IMG/VR virus record: IMGVR_UViG_3300031952_000008
Location: 1-64,000 of that record
DNA length: 64,000 nucleotides
Reading direction: 5' to 3' (one strand)
Origin: a virus
Program-made: the position numbers and the translations under genes
The notes under the pieces: model-generated
The model's input: the letters and a program-made list of their open reading frames with translations, nothing else
What the model was told of the DNA's origin: nothing
Database searches by the model: none
Part shown: piece after piece, positions 14,663 through 36,063 of the stretch
Layout of the letters: the number at the start of each line of letters is the position of its first letter
How positions within the stretch are numbered: position 1 is the first letter of the stretch

Positions 14663-15271
14663 ATGAAAATATTATGTTTCGGCGCCCACCCTGATGATTT
14701 GGAGATTGGTATGGGAGGAACGATAAGTAAACTTATTAAACAAGGGCACGAGGTTCATATGTTTATATCTAGAGAATGTGAAGAAATTAGATTAGAAGAA
14801 CAGATGGAAAGTAAAGAAATACTAAAACCTTTTAGATTATATACAAATAACGAAACACCATTTACTTTCTATGATGAAAAAAGAATGGAAGAAGTAGGAG
14901 TAGTAACTAGATTAATTAGAGAAATTAAACCAGATAGAGTTTATATGCCTTGCATTTATGATAGTAATCAACATCACGAGGCTTTAGGTAAGATTATTCT
15001 TACATCACTTAGGCTTTCGGATATTAGTTGTTATATGTATAGTATGACTACCGTGAAAGGTTATACTATTGAAAAGTTTATTCCTCAAGTTTATGAAGAT
15101 ATTACAAACGAATTTATAACAAAAATTGAGGCAATAGGTTGTCATAGGTCACAAATAAAAAAGTGGCCAGACTATTTTAAGTATATTAAGGACAAGGATG
15201 CTCATAATGGTTTCGAGGTTGGGGTCAAGTATGCCGAGACTTTTTATGTTGTTAGAGAGGTTAGAAAATAA
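14663..15271 (+). CDS. PIG-L / LmbE family deacetylase
   Basis: A 202-residue protein with the zinc-binding signature AHPDDLEIG at residues 8-16 and a second metal motif in NQHHEALG (about 109-116). The family removes N-acetyl groups from amino sugars (GlcNAc-PI, mycothiol and bacillithiol precursors, chitobiose in archaea). The substrate here is not evident; the sugar genes of this virus are one possible link. It sits between primase and DNA methyltransferase genes, so action on a modified nucleotide is an alternative. ATG 14663 follows TGAGGTGTTAAA, and the stop overlaps the next start. Confidence 0.88.
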   Translation: MKILCFGAHPDDLEIGMGGTISKLIKQGHEVHMFISRECEEIRLEEQMESKEILKPFRLYTNNETPFTFYDEKRMEEVGVVTRLIREIKPDRVYMPCIYDSNQHHEALGKIILTSLRLSDISCYMYSMTTVKGYTIEKFIPQVYEDITNEFITKIEAIGCHRSQIKKWPDYFKYIKDKDAHNGFEVGVKYAETFYVVREVRK

Positions 15272-16965
15272 TGGAAATTAACCAAATTATATGCGAAGAT
15301 TGTATTTCTGGAATGAAGAAAATGGAAAAAGATTCAGTTGCCATTAGTATAACCTCTCCTCCTTATCGTGCAGGGGTAGATATTAGTAGCGGTAAAAAAA
15401 GTAAGTATGATATTTATAAAGATGACTTATCCGATGACGAGTATTATAAACTAATTAAAGAAAGCCTTACTGAGGCTATTAGAGTATCTAAGTATTATGT
15501 ATTTATGAACTTCCAGATTCTTTCCGGAACCAAGAAGGTTTGGAACCAGATAATGTGGGATTTTAAAGACAATATAAAAGAATACTTTGTGTGGGCAAAA
15601 ACTTGTAGCCAACCAGCAATTTGTGACTGCGTAGTTAGTTCAGGGTTTGAATTTATTATTTGTTTTACTAAACCCGAAATGGCTACTAAAAGAAAGTTCG
15701 AGTATTGTTTTTGGGATAACAGAGAAAAAGGTGCTAGAGTAGTATCTAACACCCTTATTTATCCACCAAATTTTGGGAATAGAACAGAAAACTTGGCCTG
15801 TTTAACTCCAGATACAGAAATTCTTACAATAGAGGGTTGGAAAAATTATAAGGAACTAGATTGCGAAAAAGGAACAAAAATAGCAAGTTATAATATAGAA
15901 ACGGGAAAGATAGAATATGAAAGATTAAGTTATTTACATGAATTAGATTTTGAAGGAAATTTAGTACAGATTACTAATAAAAGATTAGATATATTAATGA
16001 CACCAGACCACAGAAGTGTAATTAAAAGAAAAGGTAAAGAAATGATTGTTTTGGCCGACCAAATATCTAAAAAGGATAAAATAAGAATCGCCGCAGATTT
16101 TGATTATACAGTAATGGGAAGTATAGGAGAATCGTTTGCGGAATTGGTAGGTTGGATAATATCGGAAGGACATTTTATTAAATCAGAATATAATGGTAAA
16201 CAATATTCTCCCAATACGATAGGTATTTTTCAGAATAGAGGTAAAAAAAGTAAAAGAATAGAAGATTTGATTAAAAAATTAGAAATACCTTATTCTAAAA
16301 GAAAACACGGAAAAGGTTATGATTTTTATCTTAAAAAATCACCATTAATCGAATGGGTTTTAAAGAATATACCTGATAAACAACTTAATAGATTTTTGGT
16401 TTCTCTTCCTAAAAACGAAATTAAAAGACTATTTGAAGGTTTAGTATTGGGAGATGGTCATATTAGAAAAGATGGTAGAATTTGTTTTTCGCAAAAAAAT
16501 AAAAAAACAACTGACTGGTTTCAAATATTAGCTTTGAGATTGGGTTATAGTGCTATCATTACTAAAAGAAAAAATATTAATGTTGTTTATTTAAACAATA
16601 AAGATTGGATAGGAATATTAACTAATAAAAATAAAAGTATAATTAAAAGTAAATTTTACAAAGGTAAGGTTTGGTGTCCCACGGTTAGAAAAAACTATAC
16701 TTTTGTAGCTAGAAGAAACGGAAAACCATTTATAACAGGAAATTGTTTCCCTACTTGGCTTCCGGAGTTTTTTATCAAGAATTTCACTAGGGAGGGAGAT
16801 ACGGTTTTAGATTTCTTTGCCGGGACTTGCACCACCGCTAAAGTAGCCAAGCGTATGGGTAGAAACTATTTAGGGTTTGAAATAAGCCAGGGTTATATTG
16901 ATAAAGCTAATAAAGAATTAAGCGATATAATGGCTAAAGGAGAAGGTTTAGATAAATATATGTGA
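15271..16965 (+). CDS. DNA (N4-cytosine/N6-adenine) methyltransferase interrupted by an intein
   Basis: A 564-codon gene. The extein has the amino-methyltransferase catalytic motif TSPPY at residues 28-32 and, after the intein, the SAM motif VLDFFAGTCTT (about 511-521) followed by AKRMGRNYLGFEI. The order (SPPY first, F.G.G last) is the beta-class arrangement. Residues 177-491 are an intein inserted before Cys492, in the segment where the family reads HPA.FP..LP..FI (here LA/CFPTWLPEFFI). After splicing the enzyme has 249 residues. It probably protects viral DNA from host nucleases or modifies it. No cognate restriction enzyme is seen. Confidence 0.92.
   Translation: MEINQIICEDCISGMKKMEKDSVAISITSPPYRAGVDISSGKKSKYDIYKDDLSDDEYYKLIKESLTEAIRVSKYYVFMNFQILSGTKKVWNQIMWDFKDNIKEYFVWAKTCSQPAICDCVVSSGFEFIICFTKPEMATKRKFEYCFWDNREKGARVVSNTLIYPPNFGNRTENLACLTPDTEILTIEGWKNYKELDCEKGTKIASYNIETGKIEYERLSYLHELDFEGNLVQITNKRLDILMTPDHRSVIKRKGKEMIVLADQISKKDKIRIAADFDYTVMGSIGESFAELVGWIISEGHFIKSEYNGKQYSPNTIGIFQNRGKKSKRIEDLIKKLEIPYSKRKHGKGYDFYLKKSPLIEWVLKNIPDKQLNRFLVSLPKNEIKRLFEGLVLGDGHIRKDGRICFSQKNKKTTDWFQILALRLGYSAIITKRKNINVVYLNNKDWIGILTNKNKSIIKSKFYKGKVWCPTVRKNYTFVARRNGKPFITGNCFPTWLPEFFIKNFTREGDTVLDFFAGTCTTAKVAKRMGRNYLGFEISQGYIDKANKELSDIMAKGEGLDKYM
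15799..16743 (+). mobile_element. Intein with LAGLIDADG (DOD) homing endonuclease
   Basis: 315 codons in frame within the methyltransferase gene. The N-terminal splice block begins CLTPDTEILT with Cys1; block B is seen as LMTPDHRSVIK. The endonuclease motifs are ELVGWIISEGH and LFEGLVLGDGH. The C-terminal block reads YTFVARRNGKPFITGN followed by extein Cys. The terminal Asn is kept, but the penultimate residue is Gly rather than the usual His. This is known in some inteins and may slow Asn cyclisation. Confidence 0.92.
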
Positions 16966-19513: not shown

Positions 19514-21310
19514 ATGGTAGAAAAATTTATTAAGGAAACAGTAGAAAATTATGTCAATAGCAAGTCTTGGAGAATTGCCGAAAACGCTAATGCTCGTTGG
19601 AGTTATAGCGGGTTACAATCCTTTATAGCAGGGGCCGTTCTTTCCGATTACGCTCTTAATAACGTTTACACTCCAGAAATTAAAGAAGCTCATAAAGCCC
19701 ATTCTATCCATATACATGACCTTGATGGTGGTGGGAAGATATTTTATTGTTTAGGTCATAGCCTTAAGCAACTTCTTATAAAAGGATTTTGTGGCGTTCC
19801 AGGAAAGGTTTCAGCAAAACCAGCAAAACATTTCGATTCGGTATTGGGACAAATCGTTAATTATATAGGAACCCTCCAAAACGAGGCAAGTGGCGCCCAA
19901 GCTTTTAGTAGTTTTGATACTTACTTATGCCCCTTTATTAGGTATGATAATTTAAATCCTGAACAAGTTAAACAAGCACTTCAAGAGTTTATATTTAGTA
20001 TTAACCAATCCTGTAGATGGGGTAATCAAGTACCTTTCTTTAATATTACTTTAGACCTTAAGTGTCCGGAACCTTTAAAAGATAAGTTTGTTATTATAGG
20101 TGGTAAGGAGCAAAAAGAGAAATATGTGGATTTTCAAAAAGAACAAGATTTATTTAATAAGGCTTTAATTGATTTATTTATAGAAGGTGATAGTGATGGT
20201 AGACCATTTACCTTTCCTTTACCTACTATTAATTTAACCAAAGATTTTGATTGGGAAGGAGAAATTGCTCAAAAGATATTCTTTATGACAGGCAAGTATG
20301 GAACTCCCACTTTCCAAAACTTTATAAATAGTGATATGAAACCTGAGGATACTTACTCTATGTGCTGTCGTCTTAGATTAGATAAAAAATTATTAGAGAA
20401 AAAGACTGGCGGACTATTTGGAGCAGGAGAAATGACTGGAAGTATAGGCGTTGTTACTATTAATATGCCACAATTAGGGTTTAAAACTAAAGGTAGTGAA
20501 GAAAAGTTTTTTATTGAACTAGATAGGTTAATGGATATATCCTCTAAATCTTTAGAAATAAAAAGAAAAGAGATAGAGTATTCTCTTAAAATAGCTTTAA
20601 CTCCTTATACTAGGGAATATTTAGGTACAACAAGAAATCATTTTAGTACTATTGGTTTAAATGGTATGCATGAGTGTTGTTTGAATTTCTTAGGTAAAGA
20701 TAAGGGTATTGATACTAAAGAGGGTAAAGATTTTACTCTTAAAGTATTAGATTTTATGAGAGGAAAGTTAGTGGTTTATCAAGAGAAAACTGGCAATCTT
20801 TATAACTTAGAAGCTACACCAGCCGAAGGTACTAGTCATAGATTTGCCAGATATGATATAGAAAAGTTTCCTGATATAATTACTGCTGGTACAAAAACAA
20901 CTCCATACTATACCAATTCAACACAATTACCAGTTGATAAAGTTATTGATGTCTTTGATGCACTAACTCAACAGGATGAATTACAATGTAAATATACTGG
21001 TGGAACAGTATTTCATGCATTTATTGGGGAGAGATTACATGATTGGAGAACTACAAGAAATTTAGTTAAGAAGATAGCTGAGAACTTTAAATTACCATAC
21101 TTTACTATTAGTCCAACTTTTACTATTTGTAAAGAACATGGTTACATAAGTGGAGAACATTTTAAATGTCCTATAGATAAATGCGAACAACCTACAGAAG
21201 TTTATAGTCGTATTGTGGGATATTATAGACCCGTTCAACAATGGAATAAGGGGAAAAAAGCCGAGTTTCGTGAAAGAAACGAATTTAAGATAGAACAAGT
21301 TGATATTTGA
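19514..21310 (+). CDS. nrdD: Anaerobic (class III) ribonucleoside-triphosphate reductase
   Basis: A 598-residue protein of the archaeal NrdD type, reducing NTPs to dNTPs with a glycyl radical. Seen: HSIHIHDLD near the N-terminus, the active-site Cys pair in MCCRLRLD, and the glycyl-radical segment RIVGYYRPVQQW with Gly569, preceded by a Cys/His metal site (CKEHGYISGEHFKCPIDKC). No ATP-cone domain is present, so allosteric activity control is probably missing. The activase NrdG is not in this window (the radical SAM gene at 63508 has a different neighbourhood), so the host activase or a gene outside the window must supply it. This points to an anaerobic host habitat. Confidence 0.96.
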   Translation: MVEKFIKETVENYVNSKSWRIAENANARWSYSGLQSFIAGAVLSDYALNNVYTPEIKEAHKAHSIHIHDLDGGGKIFYCLGHSLKQLLIKGFCGVPGKVSAKPAKHFDSVLGQIVNYIGTLQNEASGAQAFSSFDTYLCPFIRYDNLNPEQVKQALQEFIFSINQSCRWGNQVPFFNITLDLKCPEPLKDKFVIIGGKEQKEKYVDFQKEQDLFNKALIDLFIEGDSDGRPFTFPLPTINLTKDFDWEGEIAQKIFFMTGKYGTPTFQNFINSDMKPEDTYSMCCRLRLDKKLLEKKTGGLFGAGEMTGSIGVVTINMPQLGFKTKGSEEKFFIELDRLMDISSKSLEIKRKEIEYSLKIALTPYTREYLGTTRNHFSTIGLNGMHECCLNFLGKDKGIDTKEGKDFTLKVLDFMRGKLVVYQEKTGNLYNLEATPAEGTSHRFARYDIEKFPDIITAGTKTTPYYTNSTQLPVDKVIDVFDALTQQDELQCKYTGGTVFHAFIGERLHDWRTTRNLVKKIAENFKLPYFTISPTFTICKEHGYISGEHFKCPIDKCEQPTEVYSRIVGYYRPVQQWNKGKKAEFRERNEFKIEQVDI

Positions 21311-21586: not shown

Positions 21587-21620
21587 GTTTCTTAGAAAGA
21601 TAGTAAAAGAGGCATTATAA
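21570..21620 (+). CDS. Possible 16-residue amphipathic peptide
   Basis: A 16-residue frame, MATLVKFLRKIVKEAL, from ATG 21570 (GAGGTAAAG just upstream) to TAA 21618-21620, which overlaps the next ATG as TAATG. As a helix it would have Lys/Arg on one side and Leu/Val/Ile on the other. The support is only the good ribosome-binding site and the coupling geometry. It overlaps the end of the previous gene by 17 bases. Confidence 0.3.
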   Translation: MATLVKFLRKIVKEAL

Positions 21621-22015
21621 TGGTAGAATGGATTGGCGTTCCTAAAGATATAACCAAGTATATAGGGTACACATATATTATAACTAACATACCAGAACGA
21701 AAGTTTTATATAGGGAAGAAACTATTCTTCTCAATTCGGAAGTTAAAGCCTTTAAAAGGAAAGAAAAATAAAAGACTAGTTCGAAAGGAGACAGATTGGA
21801 GAGACTATTATGGTTCCTGTAACGAACTTAATGCCGATATTGAACGGTTAGGGAAGGATAATTTTGAACGAGAAATACTCTCCTGTTACAAAACTAGATG
21901 GGAATGGAGTTACGCCGAACTAAAAGAACAGGTGGATAGAGATGTTTTACGCAGGAAAGATTTTTATAACGGAATAATTCGAGTTCGTTTACCTGGTTTT
22001 AAGAAGGATTTATAG
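21620..22015 (+). CDS. GIY-YIG-like endonuclease
   Basis: A 131-residue protein. TYIITNIPERKFYIGKK near residues 17-34 is the GIY-YIG-type core (Y.Y.ITN...K.YIGKK), followed by WRDYYGSC, IERLGKDNFEREIL and a C-terminal YAELKEQVDRDVL...YNGIIRVR. This matches small seg-like or putative homing endonucleases seen in many tailed viruses. It may be a homing enzyme or a nuclease that cuts host DNA. It starts at ATG 21620, overlapping the 16-residue frame, with AGAGG upstream. Confidence 0.72.
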   Translation: MVEWIGVPKDITKYIGYTYIITNIPERKFYIGKKLFFSIRKLKPLKGKKNKRLVRKETDWRDYYGSCNELNADIERLGKDNFEREILSCYKTRWEWSYAELKEQVDRDVLRRKDFYNGIIRVRLPGFKKDL

Positions 22016-22055
22016 GAATTTATATAAAATTTATAAAAACTTTACGAAATCAACA

Positions 22056-22069
22056 GAAAGCTTTAAATA
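22056..22069 (+). promoter_or_regulatory. Archaeal promoter (BRE and TATA box) of the S-layer-like gene
   Basis: GAAAGC followed by TTTAAATA (22062-22069) is a good BRE/TATA pair. Transcription would start about 25 bases downstream, near 22092, and give a leader of about 125 bases before ATG 22218. It lies between the endonuclease stop and the S-layer-like gene. Confidence 0.65.
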
Positions 22070-22091
22070 CTAGAACTTGTATATAGTAATT

Positions 22092-22125
22092 AAGGACGCT
22101 AAAAACAAGGTTAAATGCGTTCCTT
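22092..22125 (+). promoter_or_regulatory. Hairpin at the predicted 5' end of the S-layer-like mRNA
   Basis: AAGGACGC (22092-22099) pairs with GCGTTCCTT (22117-22125) with one bulged T, giving an eight-base-pair stem on a 17-base loop. It would lie at the very 5' end of the transcript predicted from the TATA box. Such hairpins often stabilise mRNA; a regulatory role is inferred. Confidence 0.4.
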
Positions 22126-22217
22126 TCTTAAAATATGGCTAAAGTTGAATGTTAAAGGGGATTGATTTCTTTGGCTTACAGCTAGTGGAACAATCTTATA
22201 AGCGAGGTTTAAACAAA

Positions 22218-23891
22218 ATGGAAATAAAAAAAGTTATGAAGGGAGTAGCGTTGGGGTCTTTAATGCTGGGTGCTACATTCTTAGCAGGATGTAACGGAGC
22301 AGTTATTGAACAGCAAAAGAACCAAATTGACGCTCTTAGTACAAAATTAGATAGTATGGCAACCAAGACAACAGGTCTTGAACAATCTGTATCAGATTTG
22401 ACTGATATAGCTAAAACACAGCAAGATATTGCTAAATCTATGGAATTGGCTAAAGAAGTTGCAGAGAAAAAGGCAACTGAAAACGATGCTAAAATCTTGG
22501 AAGATGCTAAATTAATAGAAGCATTACAAGGAGAGATAACAGGTCTTAAAGCTGAAGTTACTGTTGGTGCAGGAAGCGGAACAGGAAAAATTCTTGAAAT
22601 GGATTTTAATGAAGGCGAGAATACAACACTTGATGATTCAGACCTTGGTTTGATTAATGATGAAGTGGAATTTGATGGAGACGATTATGATGTTAAAGAG
22701 GAAGTAATCTTTACAGATGCTTTTAAACTAATGACATCAATAGAAGGCGATGAGAACTTTGCTGAGAAACCTTACTTGGTTACTACAGATGAAGGAGCTA
22801 TTGCTTACAAATACATTATAGAAGATGATTTGTTGGCTTCAGATATTTCCGAAGATGAACCATTGAACATAAAGTTCCTTGGTAAAGATATGGAAATTAT
22901 AAAAGCAAACAATGTTACTGGCGAGATAACTGTTAGAGAAGGAGCTAAATTCTTGATGGATGAAGGAGCAACCAAAACTATTACACTAGACGGAAAAGAC
23001 TATGTAGTCACCGTTGATTTTATTAGTGAAAATGGCGGAGCTAAATTTTCCATTAATGGACAAGTTACATCAACTCTAGATGAAGGCGAAACTGATGAGG
23101 CATCAGATATTGAAGTTTCTGTAATAGAAATCTTGGATAATGAAGCCGCTGAAGGAAGAGCAGACAAAGTAGAATTCTACCTAGGAGAGACTGTTTACAA
23201 AACAATCGCTGATGGGGACGAATATACTGAGGATGTTGAAGACTTTATCTATACAATAAAATTTGATGGAGCTAACCTAAGGAGTATCGGTGTCAGTTAT
23301 GATAGACAAGCAGATGACTTGGAAGACATCGAAGACGGTTTTGAACCTATCGCTATAGGAAAGGAATTAGTATTCCCTGAGGGTTATGTTAAAGTTAAAT
23401 TCTTGGGAGTTACAGATGTTAATTACAACCAATATGATTTGACACTTGAAGAACAAGGAGATACTCATATGCCAGTTGTTCAATTAGTATCTGATGACGA
23501 TAGAGGATTTAGTGTTGGTACTGAAGAAGTTAACAAGGTTAGAATTAATGCAACCAATGTTTTCTACAGGGATGACAATAATGATTGGATAACAGCAGAT
23601 TTGAATACATTAAAACTAACTTTTGAAGACACAGAATTAGGTGTAACTTATGTTGGTACAAAACTAAGTATCGGAAAATTAGATGTAGTTACTGACTTTA
23701 CAAAGTTAGGAGTTACAGAAGAACAATCCGAGCCTACAGAAATAGTCTATAACGGAGTTAGTCTAGGAACTAAAGAAGATAAAGTCTTGACAACTGATGG
23801 AGTTATCATAGCAGTAGAAGAGGATGAAGATAGATTCAGCTTCTCACTACCTGGTGATGACATCACAGGAGATGTTGAGGTTTATCAATAA
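22218..23891 (+). CDS. S-layer-like lipoprotein
   Basis: A 557-residue exported protein. Residues 1-25 are a lipoprotein signal peptide with lipobox LAGC (Cys25). Residues about 26-115 are Ala/Lys/Glu-rich coiled coil. From about 120 to the end it is beta-rich and acidic, with blocks such as DEPLNIKFLGKDMEI, ITVREGAKFLMDEGA, KTITLDGKDYVVTVDFI and ADKVEFYLGETVYKTI that follow the order typical of S-layer proteins of DPANN archaea. It may coat the host cell, mask receptors against other viruses, or be a virion surface protein. It has its own promoter and terminator. ATG 22218 (GAGGT nine bases upstream) is preferred to ATG 22149, which would put 23 polar residues before the signal peptide. Confidence 0.72.
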   Translation: MEIKKVMKGVALGSLMLGATFLAGCNGAVIEQQKNQIDALSTKLDSMATKTTGLEQSVSDLTDIAKTQQDIAKSMELAKEVAEKKATENDAKILEDAKLIEALQGEITGLKAEVTVGAGSGTGKILEMDFNEGENTTLDDSDLGLINDEVEFDGDDYDVKEEVIFTDAFKLMTSIEGDENFAEKPYLVTTDEGAIAYKYIIEDDLLASDISEDEPLNIKFLGKDMEIIKANNVTGEITVREGAKFLMDEGATKTITLDGKDYVVTVDFISENGGAKFSINGQVTSTLDEGETDEASDIEVSVIEILDNEAAEGRADKVEFYLGETVYKTIADGDEYTEDVEDFIYTIKFDGANLRSIGVSYDRQADDLEDIEDGFEPIAIGKELVFPEGYVKVKFLGVTDVNYNQYDLTLEEQGDTHMPVVQLVSDDDRGFSVGTEEVNKVRINATNVFYRDDNNDWITADLNTLKLTFEDTELGVTYVGTKLSIGKLDVVTDFTKLGVTEEQSEPTEIVYNGVSLGTKEDKVLTTDGVIIAVEEDEDRFSFSLPGDDITGDVEVYQ

Positions 23892-23893
23892 AT

Positions 23894-23917
23894 GGGAGCT
23901 TTTGCTCCCTCTTTTTT
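23894..23917 (+). terminator. Hairpin terminator after the S-layer-like gene
   Basis: GGGAGC (23894-23899), TTTT loop, GCTCCC (23904-23909), then TCTTTTTT. A perfect six-pair stem followed by a T tract begins three bases after the stop codon, which indicates efficient termination of a single-gene transcript. Confidence 0.8.
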
Positions 23918-23957: not shown

Positions 23958-24197
23958 ATGGCCGATTCCGAAAAGAGACCACCAATTAGAGTGGATGATG
24001 AAGTAGATGTTGAAATAGAAAGTAGAGGTGCTAGAAGTGATGGCGTTGCTAAGTATGATGGTTTTATAATCTTCATACCAAATACTTCTGTAGGAGAGAA
24101 GGTAAAGGTTAAGGTTGAGAAGGTCTTCAAAAAATTCGCTATAGGCCGTCGGATGCTGGTTTCTGAAGATGATATTATTGTTACGAAAGACGAATAA
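23958..24197 (+). CDS. TRAM-domain RNA-binding protein
   Basis: A 79-residue protein consisting of a single TRAM domain: PIRVDDEVDVEIESRGARSDGVAKYDGFIIFIPN followed, across TSVGE, by KVKVKVEKVFKKFAIGR (as two adjacent stretches). Stand-alone TRAM proteins are an archaeal hallmark and act as RNA chaperones or cold-response proteins. This is strong support for an archaeal host. ATG 23958 follows TGTGAGGAGATTTAAAA. The viral role is unknown; it could assist late-gene translation. Confidence 0.85.
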   Translation: MADSEKRPPIRVDDEVDVEIESRGARSDGVAKYDGFIIFIPNTSVGEKVKVKVEKVFKKFAIGRRMLVSEDDIIVTKDE

Positions 24198-24209
24198 AGG
24201 TGAAATATA

Positions 24210-24506
24210 ATGATACCATTTGGAACAATATTAGTAGGACTAGGCTCAGGCCTTTCCAGAGCTTTGGTAGGATATGTTAAAAACTTACCAGATAGTACAA
24301 AAGATAACTCAATAGATTGGGTAAAAGCCGCTCCTGCTTTGATAGTAGGTGCAGGTATAGGAATTTATGGAGCAGTTGCAGGTGCAGACTTTATGACCGC
24401 TGAAGCTTTCCTAGCCTCTACAGGTGTAACTTATCTAGTAGGAGAGATATATAACACAATATATAAGGCTATAGTTGCTAAGAAATTAGTTGTTAACGCC
24501 AAGTAA
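24210..24506 (+). CDS. Small membrane protein, Gly/Ala-rich
   Basis: A 98-residue protein with probable spans at about residues 4-21, 42-62 and 64-82, the second very Gly/Ala-rich (ALIVGAGIGIYGAVAGA). Small size, two or three spans and position at the end of the surface block fit a holin-like protein, but no conserved motif proves it. ATG 24210 follows AAAGGTGAAATATA. It is the last + strand gene before the late operon on the other strand. Confidence 0.65.
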   Translation: MIPFGTILVGLGSGLSRALVGYVKNLPDSTKDNSIDWVKAAPALIVGAGIGIYGAVAGADFMTAEAFLASTGVTYLVGEIYNTIYKAIVAKKLVVNAK

Positions 24507-26227: not shown

Positions 26228-29200
26228 TTATTCTATCTCTCCAAAGGTATAAGCATCATCAGTTTCAACACATCCCGAGCACCTCTTAATGAACATAAAA
26301 TAAGGAAGTTCCACAAATCCTCCACCAGTACAACTGAAATTAGTATAAGTACTGATGTTCTTAACTTGGTTAATTCCTGTAAAATTCATAAATAACTGGG
26401 GAGTAGTATTTAAAATTATAGTATAATCATTACTTACAAACCTATTCTTGATACAAGTATTTGAAAGACTTTCATTATACCTAAGATAAACACTAAAATT
26501 ATCAGTTGAATGACTAGTCACATTCCAGAAAGGATTACCGCCCATAGGGGCAACATTCTTACTGGTTGCACTTTTAGGGGAAACATACCATTCATTCATT
26601 CCTTTAGGAATAATAGATATAGTAAAATTGGAAAGTAAAACACTAGCATATAAATCATCATCAAAATAGTATTTAGTTCCGCCAATATTATAAAATCCTC
26701 TAATTCTAAAGTTTTGACCGGATAGATTTCCAAAAATAAATCTTAAGTCTGAAAAATTAATATTACCATTTTGTGTAGTAGTTGTATTAAAAGGAACAGT
26801 TATTTCTCCGCTAGTTGGATTACTAACTCCTGTATAAATAACTATATTAGATAAATTAATTTGACTATCTTCTTCCGAAGTAAACCTTATTGGAATAGTA
26901 CAACTTCCTTCGGTCATACAATTACTTTGTATATAATGATTTAACTCTCCTCTATCCAAATTTAATACCCAAGAACTATTAAGTTCGCCATTATAATTAT
27001 GTGAATAATCAGAAGAATTACCTATATAAACTTTAAGATTATAAGGATACCTATTTGCTATAACTTCCTTATCACTACTATTTTTATTAAAATCCGAGTA
27101 AAGTTTAACGGAACAATTCCAAGTTTCCCCAACATGACTACCATTAACTTGTATGGTAGAATTATAATTATATTCTGTAGTTAAAGGAGGAATACCTATT
27201 TCATTTTCGGTATATTTAGCAGTAGTTCCATTATAAAAAGTAATATTTATATAATAAGGTCCCATAGCTTCTTCATCAATATCTATACCAATAGAACAAC
27301 TAAAATTTGAACTAGCATAAAACTTAGCCGAACCACTATTATCTTTTTTAATCAAATCTACCTTAGATATAGTACTCCAGAAATTATCATAAGTAACATT
27401 AGTATAACTTGTATCAAACGTAAAATCGCCCAAACTACCAGGAGTACTATTAGCAACAATTTTAGGAGAACTAATAGCAACATTAGTATCCAAAGCACTA
27501 ACAGGAGTAAAGTCCATATTCTGTAATAATAACCTAGTTGTTGTAATACTTAAAGTATTAGAAGGAGCAGTACCTAAATAAACTGTTGAGTTTTTAAATA
27601 TTACTTCGGGAGAGGTTATAATAGCTAAAGTATTATTATTTAATATAGATATTAATTGTGAATATTTCAATTCAAATAAGTCGCCAGTGGAAACAAGCAT
27701 AAAGGAACCATAAGAAGTAGAAGTATCGGAAACAAAAACAAGACTACTACCAGCATCCGCTATAAAATCCCCATAAGTTGTTAATATATTATTACCGCTT
27801 TCATCTCCTATAAATCCTATAGAAATTAAACTGGTATTATAAAAATCTATATCATCATAACTAATAAAACTAGTATCTCCTCCAGTAGTAGAAAATGAAC
27901 AACCAATACCAAAACCACCACCTGAAAGAGAAATATCGCTATCATTAAAAACTGTTTTATCATAAGTATAAAATTTTACATCTCCACCTTTACAACCATC
28001 ATCTCCTACATCATTACCACTAATACCTCCAACAGTAGTAAAGGTTGATTTATAAGAATTTATAGTATTATAAAAATAGGTATATACATCTCCTCCATCT
28101 CCACCATCTGCATCTCCACTATTTATACTTGCCGCATTTCCACCTTCTCCACCAGTAGCGGTTAAGATACCCTCGCATCGTTCATTAGAGTAAGATTCAT
28201 TATAACCATAATAATCTGCGTATATATGACCACCATTTCCACCATAAGACGCTCTACTAGTAAGATAATTACATTTAATAGCACCAGCATTACTACCTTC
28301 TCCAGCAGTTAATGTAACATCAAAATTGGTAATATTAGCATAGTTTTCGTAAAAATTATAATAAATATTTCCACCAACCTGTCCTTCTTCGACAGAATAA
28401 GCAGTACTACCTGTTCCACATCTAGAACAACAAACTGATGCATCATCAGGGTGAGCACCAGTAGAACTAAGTGTTGAATTTATTATTTTAATATCATAAA
28501 ATTGGAAAGTAATATTAGCATCTAAAGGAACATAACCCATAGTATTATCATCCGCGGTTCCGGTATCTCCAGTAGCACAACTAGTGGCACATTGTGCATC
28601 GTTATCTCCAGCATCGCCAGGAATCATAACTGTATCAAAATTATAAATATCATCGGTTCCATTACCTATATTTTCCCAAAATAAAGTACTTACTCCACCT
28701 TGACCGCCATTCGTATTTTCAGAAAGTTCACAAGTATCCCAACCATATGTACTATAGGCAATAACTCCATTTCCTCCATCTCCATTAGTAAAAGTCATAC
28801 TAACATCATCAATATTAGAAGTATTATCATAAATATAATAATAAGTTTTTCCACCAGCACCACCATTTGCACTAGCAGAAGTACAATTATCGGTAATAGA
28901 ACCAGTTTTGGCATTACCACCTTTTCCTCCTATCAATAAAATAGTTACATTATTAAGAGTTAAACTATGTGAAGCATTTAATATAAAAATAGCAGAACCA
29001 CCAGCACCACCCTCAGTTGCTATATTAGTAGGAGTAGAACCATCACCACCATTTCCACCTGTAATAGTAATTATAGCATCCTTAATTTCAATATCTTCTG
29101 CGGTAATATTTAAAATACCATCAATACCAGGATTTGGAGGAGAATAACCATTAGCACCATTATTACCAATAATAGTAATAATACCAGTAAGATAAACCTT

Positions 29201-29389
29201 TCCTTCACTTGTTCCTATTATTTCTTCATTATACAAAGAACCATTAGCATAAACACCATATTTGCCCGCATTAAAAGAAGTTAAATTAATATAAACTATA
29301 TGGTTACCTTCATGTGTATGAGTTGCACTAGTAAAATTAATTAATGAAAGCAATAATATTAATAATATTAATAAAGTTTTTTTAATCAT
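26228..29389 (-). CDS. Giant exported Gly-rich adhesin or fibre
   Basis: A 1053-residue protein with a clear N-terminal signal peptide (MIKKTLLILLILLLSLINFTSA). The first 550 residues are Gly- and Asn-rich with recurring GG(N/D)GG(D/N) turns and NITNFDV/YNFDTV-like strands, suggesting a parallel beta fold. The second half has Ig-like domains, including the block IGNSSDYSHNYNGELNSS and SNIVIYTGVSN shared with the neighbouring 29382-35087 protein. It carries many N-glycosylation sequons. Position between hub and baseplate genes suggests a receptor-binding role; export through Sec is unusual for a virion protein. It starts by an eight-base overlap with the upstream gene. Confidence 0.65.
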   Translation of the reverse strand: MIKKTLLILLILLLSLINFTSATHTHEGNHIVYINLTSFNAGKYGVYANGSLYNEEIIGTSEGKVYLTGIITIIGNNGANGYSPPNPGIDGILNITAEDIEIKDAIITITGGNGGDGSTPTNIATEGGAGGSAIFILNASHSLTLNNVTILLIGGKGGNAKTGSITDNCTSASANGGAGGKTYYYIYDNTSNIDDVSMTFTNGDGGNGVIAYSTYGWDTCELSENTNGGQGGVSTLFWENIGNGTDDIYNFDTVMIPGDAGDNDAQCATSCATGDTGTADDNTMGYVPLDANITFQFYDIKIINSTLSSTGAHPDDASVCCSRCGTGSTAYSVEEGQVGGNIYYNFYENYANITNFDVTLTAGEGSNAGAIKCNYLTSRASYGGNGGHIYADYYGYNESYSNERCEGILTATGGEGGNAASINSGDADGGDGGDVYTYFYNTINSYKSTFTTVGGISGNDVGDDGCKGGDVKFYTYDKTVFNDSDISLSGGGFGIGCSFSTTGGDTSFISYDDIDFYNTSLISIGFIGDESGNNILTTYGDFIADAGSSLVFVSDTSTSYGSFMLVSTGDLFELKYSQLISILNNNTLAIITSPEVIFKNSTVYLGTAPSNTLSITTTRLLLQNMDFTPVSALDTNVAISSPKIVANSTPGSLGDFTFDTSYTNVTYDNFWSTISKVDLIKKDNSGSAKFYASSNFSCSIGIDIDEEAMGPYYINITFYNGTTAKYTENEIGIPPLTTEYNYNSTIQVNGSHVGETWNCSVKLYSDFNKNSSDKEVIANRYPYNLKVYIGNSSDYSHNYNGELNSSWVLNLDRGELNHYIQSNCMTEGSCTIPIRFTSEEDSQINLSNIVIYTGVSNPTSGEITVPFNTTTTQNGNINFSDLRFIFGNLSGQNFRIRGFYNIGGTKYYFDDDLYASVLLSNFTISIIPKGMNEWYVSPKSATSKNVAPMGGNPFWNVTSHSTDNFSVYLRYNESLSNTCIKNRFVSNDYTIILNTTPQLFMNFTGINQVKNISTYTNFSCTGGGFVELPYFMFIKRCSGCVETDDAYTFGEIE

Positions 29390-32300
29390 AGTAACTACCT
29401 GTAATATTTATAGTTGCATTTTTAACCACTCTAACTCCATCAGTAATAGCATTAATACTTACTTTGGATGTGCTTACATTTTTAGGAGAGGTAGGTGTAG
29501 TTGTGTTGCTAATTAAACTACTACCTGCATTAGTTAAATAAGCTTTTATAGGATTAATATCTAAATTTAAATCTTGAACCGAATAAGTAATGGAAAGGTC
29601 TGTTAAACTAACAAATCTCTCTCCATCAAAACTAACATTTATAGGGAAAGTACAGAAAGGAGTAGTACAACTTGATATAGCACTACTTATAAGTGAAGTA
29701 TTAAAATTAATAAGAACATAATTACTGCCACTGGTATCTATTGATATAGGAAGATTTCCTGTATAGTTATAATCACTAATACCATCATTACCTACATCTA
29801 AAGTAACATTGTGAGGCCTATTACCTAATCCATCAAAATATAAATTATATAAATAACTTTTCTTTGAGCTGGTAGGTTTTAAATTAGCTTTCCACATAAC
29901 ATCTGCTCCTGAAGTATTAAAACTTACATTTTCACTATTACTTGTATAAGTATTAAAAGGAATAGGAAACCAATTATTTCCATTATCATTAGAAATATAA
30001 AAGTTAAGGGTTGAAGTATTTAAATAATTTAATTGTTCTATACTAACTGTTAAACTAGTAATATTTGAACTATTAGAATCTAACCTTGTCGAATAAATCC
30101 AACAACTAGAAGCAACTCCGCTAATCTCACTACTATATTGATTAAAAAATGCATCAAAATCACAAGTAGTAGTTGAACTGTTTATATAATCTAAATCTTC
30201 GAAATCTTCATAATAAGTATCTTTAGAACTTTGTCCTCTCATTCTAACCGTAAATGTTGAAAAAGGAGTTGATGAAGGAACTTCTATATAAGCTAAACTA
30301 CTTGTTCTACTAGTCGAACTACCATTATCACTATGATAAAAGTCTGACCCAGATTCATTAAATTTATTAACACTAGAACTGGTAGTAGAAATCATACCTG
30401 ATAAGTTAATATCTACATAACCATCATCACCTATATCAATAGTTAAATCTTCAGGATATGTAATATAACTTAAACGTATAATGAAATCACTAAAAGTAAT
30501 ATTTCCTCCAGTAGTTACACTAATATTAAATGGGAAAGTATATATTCCATCAGTAACGGTTATGTTACCATTAGTTATCCAATTATTTAAATAACTTTCG
30601 TCCAAAACTATAGTTATAGAAGGCTGTAAATAGTTTTCTGAATTATAAATAGTAAGAGAATTTGTAATATTAGGAATAGTTACCGAAATATTATAAGCAC
30701 TACTAGATTGTACCATAAATTGAATACTAGCAAACTTTATATATTGAGTATTACCAGTTCCAGATTGTTGCCTTTTATCTCTAAGAGTTAAATTAAAAAT
30801 CATACTTCCATTATCTGTAAAATTATAAGTTTTTGAAGTAACCTCGTTATTATACATATCATCCCAACCAAAAAGAGTTTGGTCGGAGTTCAATCCTGAA
30901 ACATCTAAACTTGCCGAAGTAATAGTAATATAATTAGGCAACTCTACATAAAATGCTTCATAATTATATAATCTATATTTAAGTAATATACTGGTTGAAT
31001 TATCCGAAAATTCATTAATCTTATTAGTATTAATAAGAGAAAGGTCATAACTGGCATTAAAAGTAGTATTTGAAACTCCGATAAAATAATCTATTCCTTT
31101 ACCTACCATATAAACATCTGAACCTACACTTAAATTATCCGAATTAACACTAACAATACTAACATTAGCAGTAGTACCATACTCATAAGTTCTATTAGCA
31201 AACAAACCATCTAAATTAAGATAAACATTTCTATCTAAAACACCTATATAAAACGTTCTATTCTCTCCCCAACCAACGCTATTATTAGTTCCGATAGTAC
31301 AACTTGCTGTACCGTTATAATTAAGTGCTGAATGTAATATTAATACATTTTTTATGTCCCAATTCATAGCCTCTTCATAAAGGGAAGAGTATGCTTCTTC
31401 ATTATCAACCGTCGAACTCCATAAACTCTCATTATGTTTAGCTCCAGTTGTCCAATCAGCATCCCATATTTTTGAAGAGGACGCACTACTAGTTTGTGTA
31501 CCAAAACTAGCACCATAAACCAAAGGAGCAACAGTTTCCCAAGTACTTCCATTCCAACAATCTCCCCTAGAACTAGGAGAAACATAAGTAATATTATTTA
31601 ATTTCATTGTTGCTGTTGAACTACAAAAAGCGGCACCATTAGTGATTCTACTAGCATAGGCTGATGTTTTTACAAAAATATTTCCGGTTAATGAACTAAT
31701 ATCAACGTTTCCAGAACTTATCCCCGAATAATTATAGTACCAATGGGTAGAATTAAGTTTTTCTATAATAAAATTATTACCTGCGTGAGAATATGAAGCA
31801 CCGCCATCACATTCCGCAACTATACCATCAGTATAAATAGTAACATCATTAGTTAGATTTGTGAAGATTATTCTTGTATAGATATTTGTAGATTCGCTGT
31901 GAGCACAAGCACCACATTGACCTGACATACTAAGGTTGTATAAAGTAATCTTAGATTTTAAAGCTATTTTTAAAGGGTCTATTGTACCATTTGTATAAAT
32001 ATCCATTTGACCATATTCATTAGTTCTACCAGTATCCATATAGGCACCAGCATCTAATTGAAGATAACCATTTACAATATAACTACCGGAACCATAAGTT
32101 GATTGGGCGGAATAATTATAAAACTTACTCAAATTAAGAGTTGAAGGTATAAAATTATCAAAAAGGAAAGGAGTTATACTAGAATAAAACCTATATTGTA
32201 AATTATTTTGTGACCAACAATCGGAAGGTATTGAAAAGTTTTTATCTATAGCCTGTCCACTAGATATATTATATCCATATTTTACACGCCACGAACTAGT

Positions 32301-35087
32301 ACTCATACTATTGATTAGTTTAGAATAATTAATATAAACATAGGAATCTGTATTAGTCGAATAATAATTTCCGGTACTTAATCCACCACAAACAGTAGAT
32401 ACATTAGCAGTTTCTTGATAACAAATATTAGGAGAATCTACTCCCAAAATTTCACAATCTACCTGGCTGGTATTTTCGGCCTGGATACTGAAAATAAACT
32501 CATTAGTTACTGGAGCAGTAACGTAATCTGAAAGATTAGTAATGTAAGTATAACTATTAAAGTTTTCCATTAAAGTAATATTCGAAATATTAACTACCCA
32601 AACCGGAACATCATTTACATATATAACATTTATACCAAGAGTTTGGTTAAGTCCATTAGCTCCTATGCTATCATTAACACCAATAATACAAGTTGCGTTA
32701 CCATACCAACCAAAAAAAGGAGATAATATAAGATTATTACCTGTTATATTACAATCTACCTGGCTAGTATTCTCGGATTTAATACTAAAAGTGGTACTAT
32801 ATCCGCCAGTATCATTAACATAACTAGAAAGGTTAGTAAGATAAGTGATGGTTGAACTATATTCATTAACTGAAATATTAGAAATGTTATAAAGCCAATC
32901 TATTTTAACATAAGTAAAATTAAGACAACCACTACTAGTATCTATATTTTGGTCGGCATAATTGACGCAATGTACATAAAGACAGTGATTGCCACCAGTA
33001 TAAGTATCAAAAACTGTGTAAGCATGAGAAGTAGTAGTTGTTGTGGCGAATTTATAATTGGGATTAGTAGCGACAGCGGTAGAATAATTAAGGTTGGTAT
33101 CTACTACTCCGGAACAATTAGCATTTTGACCAGTAGTTAAAGTAAGACTAAGAGTGTTACTATTTATAATAACATTTCCGTTACTATTCCAAAGAGTTCT
33201 ATTTCCTTCACTAAATACTGAACTTGTAATATTATAATTAGATATATTAGTATATGGGTGAATAGTTAAAGTAAAATTAGCTGGAGCTTGAAAACAAAAA
33301 CCAAGTATGTCACAAACTTCTACATTCCAATACCAAAGGTTGTTATCAGAAAGTGTTGCCTCAATTAAGTTAGCCGAGTTATTAACAACAGCACTAGCAT
33401 TAACTACATCTCCATGCCCACTCCAGATATGAAGTGTGGCATTAGAAATATTATTAACATAAGATTTAGGAGTATAACTAAAATTTAAAGTAATATTAGA
33501 AGTATAAGTTGTATTTGCTGGACTATTAAGAGTTACACTTATGTTTCCAGAAGCTCCACTTCCTACTGTGAAAGTATAATAGTTTCCACTGTTATTATTC
33601 AAAGCCGAGTCCCAACAACTAACATTATAATAATACTGACCATTGGAGAGACTAACTGCCTGACTAACATTACTCGCATTATAACTTTTATAATTGAATT
33701 GTGTAGTATTACCACTATCATAAACCCAAGAAACAGATTGAGGGTTATTATTTGTTGGAGTTCCTGTCTTAGTATAGTTTATACTTATCATGTTCCATGC
33801 TGATGCATGAGGTGCTCCTGAGTATATTCCTTTTAACCAAGTAATTGAACCATTGGTGAAAGGAAATCCTGAAGCTAAATTAGAATATGTGCAAGAACCC
33901 TCAGCTACCACTGGCATATCTAAAGAAAGATTTGTATTTGCTGGAAGATTAAAACTTCCTACAGCACTCGTTCCACTTCTTGTCCAATTAATAGGGTTAG
34001 TTCCATTATCATAAATAAATCTTTGAGTAGTCCTACCTAAGTTTTGCTCACCGCCACCAACAATATCATAAAATATACCTGTTATAGTAATATTTTCAGT
34101 GGCTCTTATTTTAATACCGCAAGAACCACCTCCAGAAGGGTCTCCCCAATCTAAATTTACACCATGAATAGCGGTTTCATTAACATAAGTAGTAACATTA
34201 TTCCAATTAACTATGCTACAATTTCCTCCAGCTTCATCAAGAGATAAATTAATAGCATTAACAGGAGAGCTTGTTGAACCATTGGCTGGAACAAAAGTTG
34301 TGATGTTTGGTGGTGTTATATCCCATCCATTTCCGCCACCATACAATGTTGCTATATCTCCTCCACAAATAGCATCTAATGAACAACTTGCATCATTTAT
34401 AGAATTATTAAAAAAATAATATTCATCAATGCTGACATTACCACTACCACTAGTTCCAGCACCTTGTCTATTAACACTTAAAAAGGTAGTTCCAACATTT
34501 TTAGCGTGAGCCCAAGATTCTCTATAAACACCATCTATGTATAAATATCCAATATTCGAACCCCATCTTAAAACTAAATGATGCCATTTTCCATCACTAA
34601 ATTCTGTTGTAAGTGATTCATCTGTTTGCCAATCATTACCTCCACCATAACCAGAGATTATAACATTATTAGAACTATCAAACCCAAATTGCACAAGTTG
34701 ATTTGTTGTATAAGTTCCAAAAGCAGTAAAATAACCATAATTATCTGCTGTTTGAAAAGGTCCATTGAACCACAATGATACTGTCCAATTACTTGCTCCT
34801 GAAGGTAAACCTGTTGGAGAAGCTTTGTTTGCATAATTAGTAATTCCACTACTAAAATTAACTGCTTTCCCACCACCAACACCAGTTATTTGATAAGTTG
34901 GAGAACCATACGCAGTTAAATTATTAATTCCATATTTCCCAGTTCCGTAATCTGTTATATTGCCACTGGTATCATTAAATGCCCAATAAGCTACTATATT
35001 CGCATTAGTTAAAGCACTAACCATACTTGCCATCACAAGTGATAAGATAAACATTAATCCAATTAAAAAAAATGATTTAAACTTCAT
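29382..35087 (-). CDS. Giant exported adhesin with LamG-like N-terminal domain
   Basis: A 1901-residue protein, the largest in the window. A signal peptide covers about residues 1-27. Residues about 30-240 form a concanavalin/LamG-like lectin domain (VAYWAFNDTSGNITDYG, WTVSLWFNG, DGKWHHLVLRWG, GYLYIDGV). Then come Ig- and cadherin-like domains, two of them in tandem with FSIKSENTSQVDC and FSIQAENTSQVDC, the second split by about 366 extra residues (DNA 31350-32447). The C-terminal end carries the DVGNDG module seen in archaeal surface proteins. It is very rich in NxS/T sequons. ATG 35087 (GGTG upstream) is preferred to TTG 35099. Likely role: host recognition. Confidence 0.7.
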   Translation of the reverse strand: MKFKSFFLIGLMFILSLVMASMVSALTNANIVAYWAFNDTSGNITDYGTGKYGINNLTAYGSPTYQITGVGGGKAVNFSSGITNYANKASPTGLPSGASNWTVSLWFNGPFQTADNYGYFTAFGTYTTNQLVQFGFDSSNNVIISGYGGGNDWQTDESLTTEFSDGKWHHLVLRWGSNIGYLYIDGVYRESWAHAKNVGTTFLSVNRQGAGTSGSGNVSIDEYYFFNNSINDASCSLDAICGGDIATLYGGGNGWDITPPNITTFVPANGSTSSPVNAINLSLDEAGGNCSIVNWNNVTTYVNETAIHGVNLDWGDPSGGGSCGIKIRATENITITGIFYDIVGGGEQNLGRTTQRFIYDNGTNPINWTRSGTSAVGSFNLPANTNLSLDMPVVAEGSCTYSNLASGFPFTNGSITWLKGIYSGAPHASAWNMISINYTKTGTPTNNNPQSVSWVYDSGNTTQFNYKSYNASNVSQAVSLSNGQYYYNVSCWDSALNNNSGNYYTFTVGSGASGNISVTLNSPANTTYTSNITLNFSYTPKSYVNNISNATLHIWSGHGDVVNASAVVNNSANLIEATLSDNNLWYWNVEVCDILGFCFQAPANFTLTIHPYTNISNYNITSSVFSEGNRTLWNSNGNVIINSNTLSLTLTTGQNANCSGVVDTNLNYSTAVATNPNYKFATTTTTSHAYTVFDTYTGGNHCLYVHCVNYADQNIDTSSGCLNFTYVKIDWLYNISNISVNEYSSTITYLTNLSSYVNDTGGYSTTFSIKSENTSQVDCNITGNNLILSPFFGWYGNATCIIGVNDSIGANGLNQTLGINVIYVNDVPVWVVNISNITLMENFNSYTYITNLSDYVTAPVTNEFIFSIQAENTSQVDCEILGVDSPNICYQETANVSTVCGGLSTGNYYSTNTDSYVYINYSKLINSMSTSSWRVKYGYNISSGQAIDKNFSIPSDCWSQNNLQYRFYSSITPFLFDNFIPSTLNLSKFYNYSAQSTYGSGSYIVNGYLQLDAGAYMDTGRTNEYGQMDIYTNGTIDPLKIALKSKITLYNLSMSGQCGACAHSESTNIYTRIIFTNLTNDVTIYTDGIVAECDGGASYSHAGNNFIIEKLNSTHWYYNYSGISSGNVDISSLTGNIFVKTSAYASRITNGAAFCSSTATMKLNNITYVSPSSRGDCWNGSTWETVAPLVYGASFGTQTSSASSSKIWDADWTTGAKHNESLWSSTVDNEEAYSSLYEEAMNWDIKNVLILHSALNYNGTASCTIGTNNSVGWGENRTFYIGVLDRNVYLNLDGLFANRTYEYGTTANVSIVSVNSDNLSVGSDVYMVGKGIDYFIGVSNTTFNASYDLSLINTNKINEFSDNSTSILLKYRLYNYEAFYVELPNYITITSASLDVSGLNSDQTLFGWDDMYNNEVTSKTYNFTDNGSMIFNLTLRDKRQQSGTGNTQYIKFASIQFMVQSSSAYNISVTIPNITNSLTIYNSENYLQPSITIVLDESYLNNWITNGNITVTDGIYTFPFNISVTTGGNITFSDFIIRLSYITYPEDLTIDIGDDGYVDINLSGMISTTSSSVNKFNESGSDFYHSDNGSSTSRTSSLAYIEVPSSTPFSTFTVRMRGQSSKDTYYEDFEDLDYINSSTTTCDFDAFFNQYSSEISGVASSCWIYSTRLDSNSSNITSLTVSIEQLNYLNTSTLNFYISNDNGNNWFPIPFNTYTSNSENVSFNTSGADVMWKANLKPTSSKKSYLYNLYFDGLGNRPHNVTLDVGNDGISDYNYTGNLPISIDTSGSNYVLINFNTSLISSAISSCTTPFCTFPINVSFDGERFVSLTDLSITYSVQDLNLDINPIKAYLTNAGSSLISNTTTPTSPKNVSTSKVSINAITDGVRVVKNATINITGSYYD

Positions 35088-36063
35088 TAGTAACACCAAA
35101 AGCTATCTTATCAAGACTGGTAAGTTTAGAAACTCCTTTATCTATTTCATATTGTCTAAAAGGATACTCTATCCAATTACGGTCTCCTACTGGTACAGAC
35201 ATTTCATTTAATGTATTATTAAAAATGTTTATATTAGGATTAATAATAGTTTTATTTCCGATAATCACTCCAGTTTTAAGTTTTGAAGTGTCTGAAACCA
35301 CTTCCGAAACTATACTCTTTTCTTCCACAACCTTAATTATAGTAACGTTCTTAATATCATAATGGTCGATTTGTGAGATAATATAATCATAACATTTAAG
35401 AACGGTTTTGTTAATGGTACAATCATAACAATGCATAGAAACGTTCTTGGATTGGTCAATACTACAAATATTAGTTAAAGTAACATTTTTATAAACCGGA
35501 GTAGAATCTATAGAGGTTTCGGTAACGTTCTTATAAGTAATTACTTCCCTCTCCACAGTCTTGTTAGTAAACGTGTACGACCAACTCGCCCATAAGGGGT
35601 CCACAGATACTTTACTAACTACAAAGCTCCACTTATAATATGCAGGTTGTGTGGCGTGTCCTACTAATTTGTTCAAATTATTCTTCCCACTCCAACAATA
35701 ACCATCATAGATAATTGTCCAATTCTTACTAAGCGAACCTGTCTTAGCTTTTTTAACATACCAATCTACAGTAATATTAGGGTTAGTACTAACTATATTA
35801 GATATTTTATTTAAATTAACCCAAACAGTAGTACTGTAAGGTTTTTTATATAAGTAATTACTGTTATTAGAGTATTCAAAACAAATTTTGGAAGAAGTAT
35901 TTACCGTAACAAACGCTTCACAAGTTAACCCATTACAAACCACGTCACCACTACTTATAAACTTAACCCCAGTAAGTAGGAAAAGGAAAGCAAATAATCC
36001 AACCAAGCCAACTGTAGCCCCTCCAGCTAACATCTGTTTATTTATAGTGCTATAAGTAGCCAT
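35077..36063 (-). CDS. Membrane-anchored tail-locus protein
   Basis: A 328-residue protein with a hydrophobic segment at about residues 12-35 and an outside domain rich in NVT/NKT-type sequons and Cys (for example SMHCYDCTINK). Residues 170-280 contain repeated KNVT(E/L/I) strands of coiled or beta character. No family is recognised. It precedes the two adhesins and overlaps both neighbours by a few bases, so it is probably made with them and may anchor or assemble them. Confidence 0.55.
   Translation of the reverse strand: MATYSTINKQMLAGGATVGLVGLFAFLFLLTGVKFISSGDVVCNGLTCEAFVTVNTSSKICFEYSNNSNYLYKKPYSTTVWVNLNKISNIVSTNPNITVDWYVKKAKTGSLSKNWTIIYDGYCWSGKNNLNKLVGHATQPAYYKWSFVVSKVSVDPLWASWSYTFTNKTVEREVITYKNVTETSIDSTPVYKNVTLTNICSIDQSKNVSMHCYDCTINKTVLKCYDYIISQIDHYDIKNVTIIKVVEEKSIVSEVVSDTSKLKTGVIIGNKTIINPNINIFNNTLNEMSVPVGDRNWIEYPFRQYEIDKGVSKLTSLDKIAFGVTNEV

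What the first reader, a model, noticed from the sequence alone, without database searches (positions are those of the whole stretch)
22056..23917. Viral S-layer-like lipoprotein as a separate transcription unit
A tailed virus carrying a host-type S-layer protein with lipobox, coiled coil, own BRE/TATA promoter, 5' hairpin and strong terminator is unusual. It may re-coat infected cells to block superinfection, hide from other viruses or help release. The coiled coil plus lipid anchor would place it on the membrane, beneath or within the host S-layer.
Basis: partly seen in the sequence, partly recalled or inferred. Interest (0 to 1): 0.8.

Follow-up and report, generated by a model that had tools for sequence, protein, structure and literature searches.

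The report
Highly expressed viral surface lipoprotein on stalk
A tailed virus of archaea carries, as a gene with its own promoter-like signal and terminator, a protein built to be secreted and lipid-anchored on a helical stalk at the cell surface; its codons are tuned like those of the main capsid protein, so the virus probably makes a lot of it to re-coat infected cells, but a true relationship to cellular S-layer proteins could not be shown here.

Summary
The observation largely holds. In a 94 kb archaeal tailed-virus record, window 22056-23917 is a self-contained transcription unit: the only exact AAGCTTTAAATA in the window, a ~125-nt leader with hairpins, a lipoprotein gene and a strong terminator. 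The start is better placed at 22218. The product has a signal peptide with a LAGC lipobox (the only lipobox in the virus), a significant heptad coiled coil (residues 27-117, about 13 nm), and a very acidic 440-residue ectodomain.

New here: its synonymous codon usage matches the major capsid protein and tail tube (z = 7-8; with the capsid gene as reference it ranks first of 42 genes). No other gene outside the structural block behaves this way. This predicts capsid-level expression.

"S-layer" is unproven. Pfam, NCBIfam, PHROGs, PDB, phage, plasmid, GTDB and IMG/VR searches found no relative, and structure prediction failed (pLDDT 32 and 38). DPANN genomes could not be searched by profile. The host is an archaeon; DPANN is not shown.

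Best reading: a moron-type surface lipoprotein that re-coats infected cells, most likely to block further adsorption or injection, comparable in logic to phage Ltp-type exclusion lipoproteins but with a much larger, stalked ectodomain. Function is inferred.

The parts
22053..22069 (+). archaeal promoter: BRE-like ACAGAAAG followed by TATA box CTTTAAATA
   Evidence: Exact AAGCTTTAAATA occurs once in the window; it lies in one of the few intergenic gaps (the virus is 91% coding). Transcription start inferred near 22090-22095.
22092..22125 (+).
   Evidence: Predicted; the leader as a whole is not more stable than shuffles (z -0.87), so no weight is put on it.
22158..22197 (+). second leader hairpin immediately upstream of the ribosome-binding site
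   Evidence: Fold of 22150-22206: -14.9 kcal/mol, z -2.48, 5 of 200 shuffles as stable (chosen after looking). No Rfam match.
22204..22208 (+). Shine-Dalgarno-like GAGGT, 9 nt before ATG 22218
   Evidence: read directly from the sequence
22218..23891 (+). surface lipoprotein gene, 557 aa (the longest ORF starts at 22149; 22218 preferred)
   Evidence: Translation; codon usage like capsid protein and tail tube, z 7-8
22218..22292 (+). signal peptide with lipobox LAGC; Cys25 is the predicted lipidated residue
   Evidence: MEIKKVMKGVALGSLMLGATFLAGC; only lipobox in the 94 kb; the protein's only cysteine; weak local similarity to Lpp N-terminus (NCBIfam PRK15396, E 2e-5, 24.6 bits, far below cut-off)
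22296..22568 (+). heptad coiled coil, residues 27-117, about 13 nm if one continuous helix
   Evidence: Heptad contrast 0.48 against shuffle mean 0.16, none of 2000 shuffles as high; Fourier period 3.5; no proline
22569..23888 (+). acidic ectodomain, residues 118-557, strand-rich by appearance only
   Evidence: Net charge of the mature protein about -80, no Cys beyond Cys25, one Trp; no family, PDB or genome relative; AF2 without alignment unusable (pLDDT 32 and 38)
23894..23917 (+). intrinsic-type terminator GGGAGC-TTTT-GCTCCC + TCTTTTTT
21620..22015 (+). neighbour upstream: SegE-type GIY-YIG homing endonuclease, a hint of an insertion site
   Evidence: Pfam PF19835 E 1.2e-31
23958..24197 (+). 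neighbour downstream: TRAM-domain protein, beyond the terminator
   Evidence: Pfam PF01938 E 9e-12

Best explanation
The gene is a moron-like accessory unit of an archaeal tailed virus, lying between the rightward replication genes and the convergent structural block. Its product is exported, lipidated at Cys25, oligomerises through a coiled-coil stalk of about 13 nm, and presents an acidic ectodomain at or just below the level of the host's outer protein coat. It is made in very large amounts during infection and re-coats the infected cell, most likely so that further virions (its own or competitors') cannot reach or use their surface receptor or inject. Shown: the transcription unit, lipobox, coiled coil and capsid-like codon usage. 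Inferred: lipidation, oligomerisation, surface coverage and the exclusion function.
For: Own promoter-like signal and terminator. Only lipobox in the virus; LAGC is the commonest haloarchaeal lipobox, and non-halophilic euryarchaea are predicted to export lipobox proteins through Sec (PMC2945643). Heptad stalk. Codon usage: z 7.8 with the capsid gene as reference, rank 1 of 42 genes, ahead of the tail tube; 200 random reference pairs give mean -0.9, maximum 3.8. GC3 is average (rank 26 of 54), so this is not base composition. Precedents: Ltp of phage TP-J34 is a surface lipoprotein, probable moron, involved in superinfection exclusion, which acts by blocking injection (PMC3952083); the surface protein CwpV blocks DNA entry in C. 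difficile (PMC4737114); S-layer proteins are receptors of HFTV1 and HRPV-6 (PMC9973310).
Against: No relative and no fold, so the ectodomain's activity is unknown. Known exclusion lipoproteins are small (Ltp 142 aa) and are not known to need capsid-level amounts. HFTV1, a tailed archaeal virus, shows no superinfection exclusion (PMC9973310). Whether the virus is temperate is not established. High-expression codons could be inherited from a highly expressed host gene captured recently.
Confidence: 0.4

Rival explanations
1. It is a captured host S-layer (or S-layer anchor) protein that maintains or replaces the host coat while host gene expression is shut down, keeping the cell intact until virions mature; the coiled-coil stalk works like SlaB of Sulfolobales or the tetrabrachion stalk.
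For: Stalk plus strand-rich-looking, very acidic, Cys-poor ectodomain; capsid-like codon usage fits an S-layer gene, usually among the most highly expressed in an archaeon (the last point is general knowledge). SlaB (20 nm coiled-coil stalk under beta-sandwich domains) and tetrabrachion have this layout (PMC5744192). Motifs FLGKxxxI, GKxYxV, KFxxNG and LxEGET resemble those I recall from DPANN proteins annotated as S-layer: a lead, not a test.
Against: No S-layer family, structure or genome relative found. IMG/VR scans with patterns built on those recalled motifs gave only unrelated proteins. Only 3 N-glycosylation sequons, as many as chance. At 557 aa it is small for an archaeal S-layer protein.
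Confidence: 0.27
2. It is a virion or assembly component, for example a membrane-tethered assembly or release factor, expressed late with the capsid.
For: Codon usage matches the capsid, the tail tube and 46964-47614; it lies next to the structural block; weak spanin profile hits to the lipobox plus coiled coil (PHROG 739, E 0.005).
Against: It is transcribed separately and from the opposite strand to the structural block; it has an export signal with lipobox; spanin hits cover only the signal and coiled coil, a known source of false matches; spanins span the envelope of bacteria with an outer membrane.
Confidence: 0.15
3. It is an adhesin or lectin-like surface protein that changes the infected cell's contacts (aggregation, attachment to another archaeon) rather than blocking viruses.
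For: Long stalk with a distal domain is an adhesin layout; the same virus encodes two giant exported, sequon-rich proteins, one with a Laminin_G_3 domain, and a glycan-modification cluster.
Against: No lectin or adhesin domain detected in this protein; nothing links it functionally to the giant proteins.
Confidence: 0.12

Closest known systems
Ltp-type superinfection-exclusion lipoproteins (Streptococcus thermophilus phage TP-J34)
   Same: virus-encoded, surface-exposed lipoprotein, moron-like gene
   Different: Ltp is 142 aa, bacterial and in a temperate phage; here 557 aa, archaeal, coiled-coil stalk, capsid-like codon usage, no sequence relation detected
SlaB / tetrabrachion-type archaeal S-layer stalk proteins
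   Same: membrane-anchored coiled-coil stalk carrying an outer domain
   Different: SlaB is anchored by a C-terminal transmembrane helix; tetrabrachion uses hendecad repeats; here N-terminal lipid anchor, heptads (hendecad test negative), no homology shown
Haloferax-type lipid-anchored S-layer glycoprotein
   Same: lipid-anchored acidic surface protein of an archaeon
   Different: anchored at the C-terminus through archaeosortase and PGF motif, hexagonal lattice of Ig-like domains; here N-terminal lipobox, no coat assembly shown
Lpp/OprI alanine-zipper lipoproteins
   Same: lipobox followed directly by a heptad helix; weak profile hit (E 2e-5)
   Different: score far below the curated cut-off (24.6 against 108 bits); a 440-residue ectodomain follows; archaeal virus
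CwpV of Clostridioides difficile
   Same: large surface protein interfering with phage DNA entry (functional analogy only)
   Different: host-encoded, cell-wall-bound, repeat-based; no sequence similarity tested

Membership tests
Archaeal S-layer protein | homology to a known S-layer family or structure | tested here: not met
   No Pfam, NCBIfam or PHROG S-layer match; PF05123 absent from the virus; no PDB relative at E 10. Models for DPANN S-layers may not exist in these libraries, and no DPANN profile search was possible.
Archaeal S-layer protein | forms a two-dimensional lattice on the cell | not testable with these tools
   needs microscopy
Archaeal S-layer protein | very high expression | tested here: inconclusive
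   capsid-like codon optimisation supports it indirectly; no expression data
Archaeal S-layer protein | exported and anchored to the membrane | tested here: met
   signal peptide and LAGC lipobox in sequence; lipidation itself not shown
Phage moron | own promoter and terminator, unlinked to flanking operons | tested here: met
   sequence signals only
Phage moron | absent from close relatives at the same place | not testable with these tools
   no close relative of the virus was found
Ltp-type superinfection-exclusion lipoprotein | sequence relation to Ltp | not tested
   no direct comparison was made; no phage protein matched usefully
Ltp-type superinfection-exclusion lipoprotein | blocks infection by other viruses | not testable with these tools
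   needs an infection assay
Lpp/OprI alanine-zipper lipoprotein | scores above the curated family cut-off | tested here: not met
   24.6 bits against 108 (PRK15396), 15.1 against 43 (Ala_zip_lipo)
Rz-like spanin | spanin domain beyond a generic coiled coil, small size | tested here: not met
   weak hits only over residues 17-98; 557 aa

The most novel reading that the evidence does not exclude
An archaeal tailed virus rebuilds its host's envelope with its own S-layer-like coat protein, made at capsid level, so that infected cells become unrecognisable to other viruses; with its giant exported sequon-rich proteins and glycan-modifying genes this would be a virus-encoded cell-surface replacement programme.
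Probability: 0.2. Interest if true: 0.85.

Novelty: new variant of a known kind. Interest (0 to 1): 0.55.

Why it matters
Entry and exclusion of tailed viruses in uncultured archaea are almost unknown, and S-layers are among the few known receptors. A virus that invests capsid-level expression in a stalked surface lipoprotein makes a concrete, testable case that archaeal viruses remodel the infected cell's coat. Capsid-referenced codon bias is also a cheap way to find such abundant non-virion proteins in metagenomic virus genomes.

Tried and rejected
Homologue searches: single-protein scans of IMG/VR and of GTDB genomes; tblastn against phages (one chance coiled-coil hit, E 0.5) and plasmids (none); four degenerate-pattern scans of IMG/VR, hits read and found unrelated. 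These pattern scans need near-exact peptides and would miss distant relatives. DPANN genomes by profile: no centre genome could be obtained, a second GTDB scan with the RadA-like protein found nothing, metagenome scans are capped at 0. AF2 on residues 118-557 and 210-340: pLDDT 32 and 38, so no fold search was made (it would be meaningless). Internal repeats in the ectodomain: not above shuffles. Horizontal transfer by base composition: GC slightly high (rank 8 of 54), GC3 average; the atypical codon usage is explained by its likeness to the capsid gene instead. Hendecad (tetrabrachion-type) coiled coil: not supported. Relatives of the virus by portal, RadA-like and capsid proteins in IMG/VR: none. 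Spanin and Lpp membership: rejected.

Full report
What was checked. The window is the first 64 kb of a 94,280-base virus record. It is a tailed virus: portal, HK97-type major capsid, tail tube, tape measure and tail proteins lie on the minus strand from 24.7 to 52.5 kb, and a terminase-like gene lies beyond the window. It is archaeal: family B DNA polymerase and a Rad51/RadA-like protein whose best phage matches are haloviruses at about 30% identity, a TRAM protein, archaeal BRE/TATA-like signals before several genes, and a capsid protein whose only relative among 50,697 phage records is that of the Altiarchaeum virus Altivir_8, 26% identical (PMC8324899). A DPANN host is plausible but not shown.

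The unit. AAGCTTTAAATA at 22058-22069 is the only exact match in the window and sits in an intergenic gap of a 91% coding genome. A GAGGT motif 9 nt before ATG 22218 makes that the likely start rather than 22149. The leader is about 125 nt; as a whole it is not unusually structured (z -0.87), although the hairpin just before the ribosome-binding site is mildly so (z -2.5, post hoc). A strong terminator follows the stop codon. A GIY-YIG homing endonuclease lies directly upstream.

The protein. Residues 1-25 form a signal peptide ending in LAGC; no other ORF of the virus has a lipobox. Residues 27-117 form a heptad coiled coil (none of 2000 shuffles as good, period 3.5), about 13 nm as a helix. 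Residues 118-557 are very acidic, with no cysteine and no internal repeats above chance. N-glycosylation sequons are at the chance level (3).

Codon usage. I compared synonymous codon choice of every gene of at least 600 bases with that of the major capsid protein and tail tube, against the rest of the genome and conditional on each gene's amino-acid content. The lipoprotein gene scores z 7.2 to 7.9. With the capsid gene alone as reference it ranks first of 42, ahead of the tail tube. With PolB, NrdD or the tape measure as reference it ranks 40th of 42, and 200 random reference pairs give a mean of -0.9 and a maximum of 3.8. The signature is the C-ending codons ATC, AAC, TAC and TTC and the absence of CGN arginine. 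GC3 is average, so this is not base composition. The simplest reading is selection for very high translation, either in the virus or in a highly expressed host gene from which it was taken. This is an inference from codons, not a measurement of expression.

Is it an S-layer protein? Every homology route available was negative, and the motif-based scans of IMG/VR returned unrelated proteins. Single-sequence AlphaFold gave no usable model. The resemblance to DPANN S-layer motifs is my recollection only. A profile search of DPANN genomes, which would decide, could not be run. So 'S-layer-like' can stand as a description of layout and predicted abundance, not as membership. Literature searches of the held library found no report of an archaeal tailed virus carrying an S-layer protein; that is absence from this library, not proof of absence.

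How it probably works. Export, lipidation and the stalk would place the ectodomain about 13 nm off the membrane; the periplasmic space reported for Nanoarchaeum is about 20 nm (PMC5744192), so the domain would sit near the coat. Capsid-level amounts suggest surface coverage rather than a trace factor. Since S-layer proteins are receptors for tailed and pleomorphic haloviruses (PMC9973310), and phage surface lipoproteins of the moron type are involved in exclusion (PMC3952083), masking or exclusion is the leading function at about 0.4. Coat maintenance, a virion or assembly role, and adhesion remain open.

Context. The same virus encodes two giant exported proteins in its tail block (window 26228-29389 and 29382-35099) whose N-glycosylation sequons are about twice the shuffled expectation (40 against 21, 100 against 51), and a cluster of glycosyltransferases, DegT aminotransferases and methyltransferases. 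The lipoprotein may be one part of a wider surface programme; this is conjecture.

Noticed in passing
window 26228-29389 (-) and 29382-35099 (-): Two giant tail-block proteins (1053 and 1905 aa) start with Sec-type signal peptides and carry 40 and 100 N-glycosylation sequons, about twice the shuffled expectation; the larger has a Laminin_G_3 domain. Exported, glycosylated proteins inside a tail-gene block are odd.
   Followed up: partly
window 57498-63511 and L019:553-3343: Cluster of glycosyltransferases, DegT/DnrJ aminotransferases and methyltransferases: the virus may make or modify a glycan, perhaps for the sequon-rich proteins.
   Followed up: partly
L020:2495-8130 (record 82495-88130): ThiF/E1-like gene (Pfam E 1.7e-14) near ORFs that look by eye like an E2 (HPHAHDNGECCLG), a JAB protease and a small ubiquitin-like protein: a possible viral ubiquitin-like conjugation (PRTRC-like) set. 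Only ThiF was confirmed by Pfam.
   Followed up: partly
window 46964-47614 (-): 216-aa protein of no known family whose codon usage also matches capsid and tail tube (z about 5): likely an abundant virion protein.
   Followed up: no
window 15271-16965 (+): N4/N6 DNA methylase interrupted by an intein with LAGLIDADG endonuclease.
   Followed up: no
window 24210-24506 (+): Small hydrophobic protein downstream of the TRAM gene; a holin or membrane factor is possible.
   Followed up: no
window 19514-21310 (+): Anaerobic ribonucleotide reductase NrdD carried by the virus, suggesting an anaerobic host.
   Followed up: no
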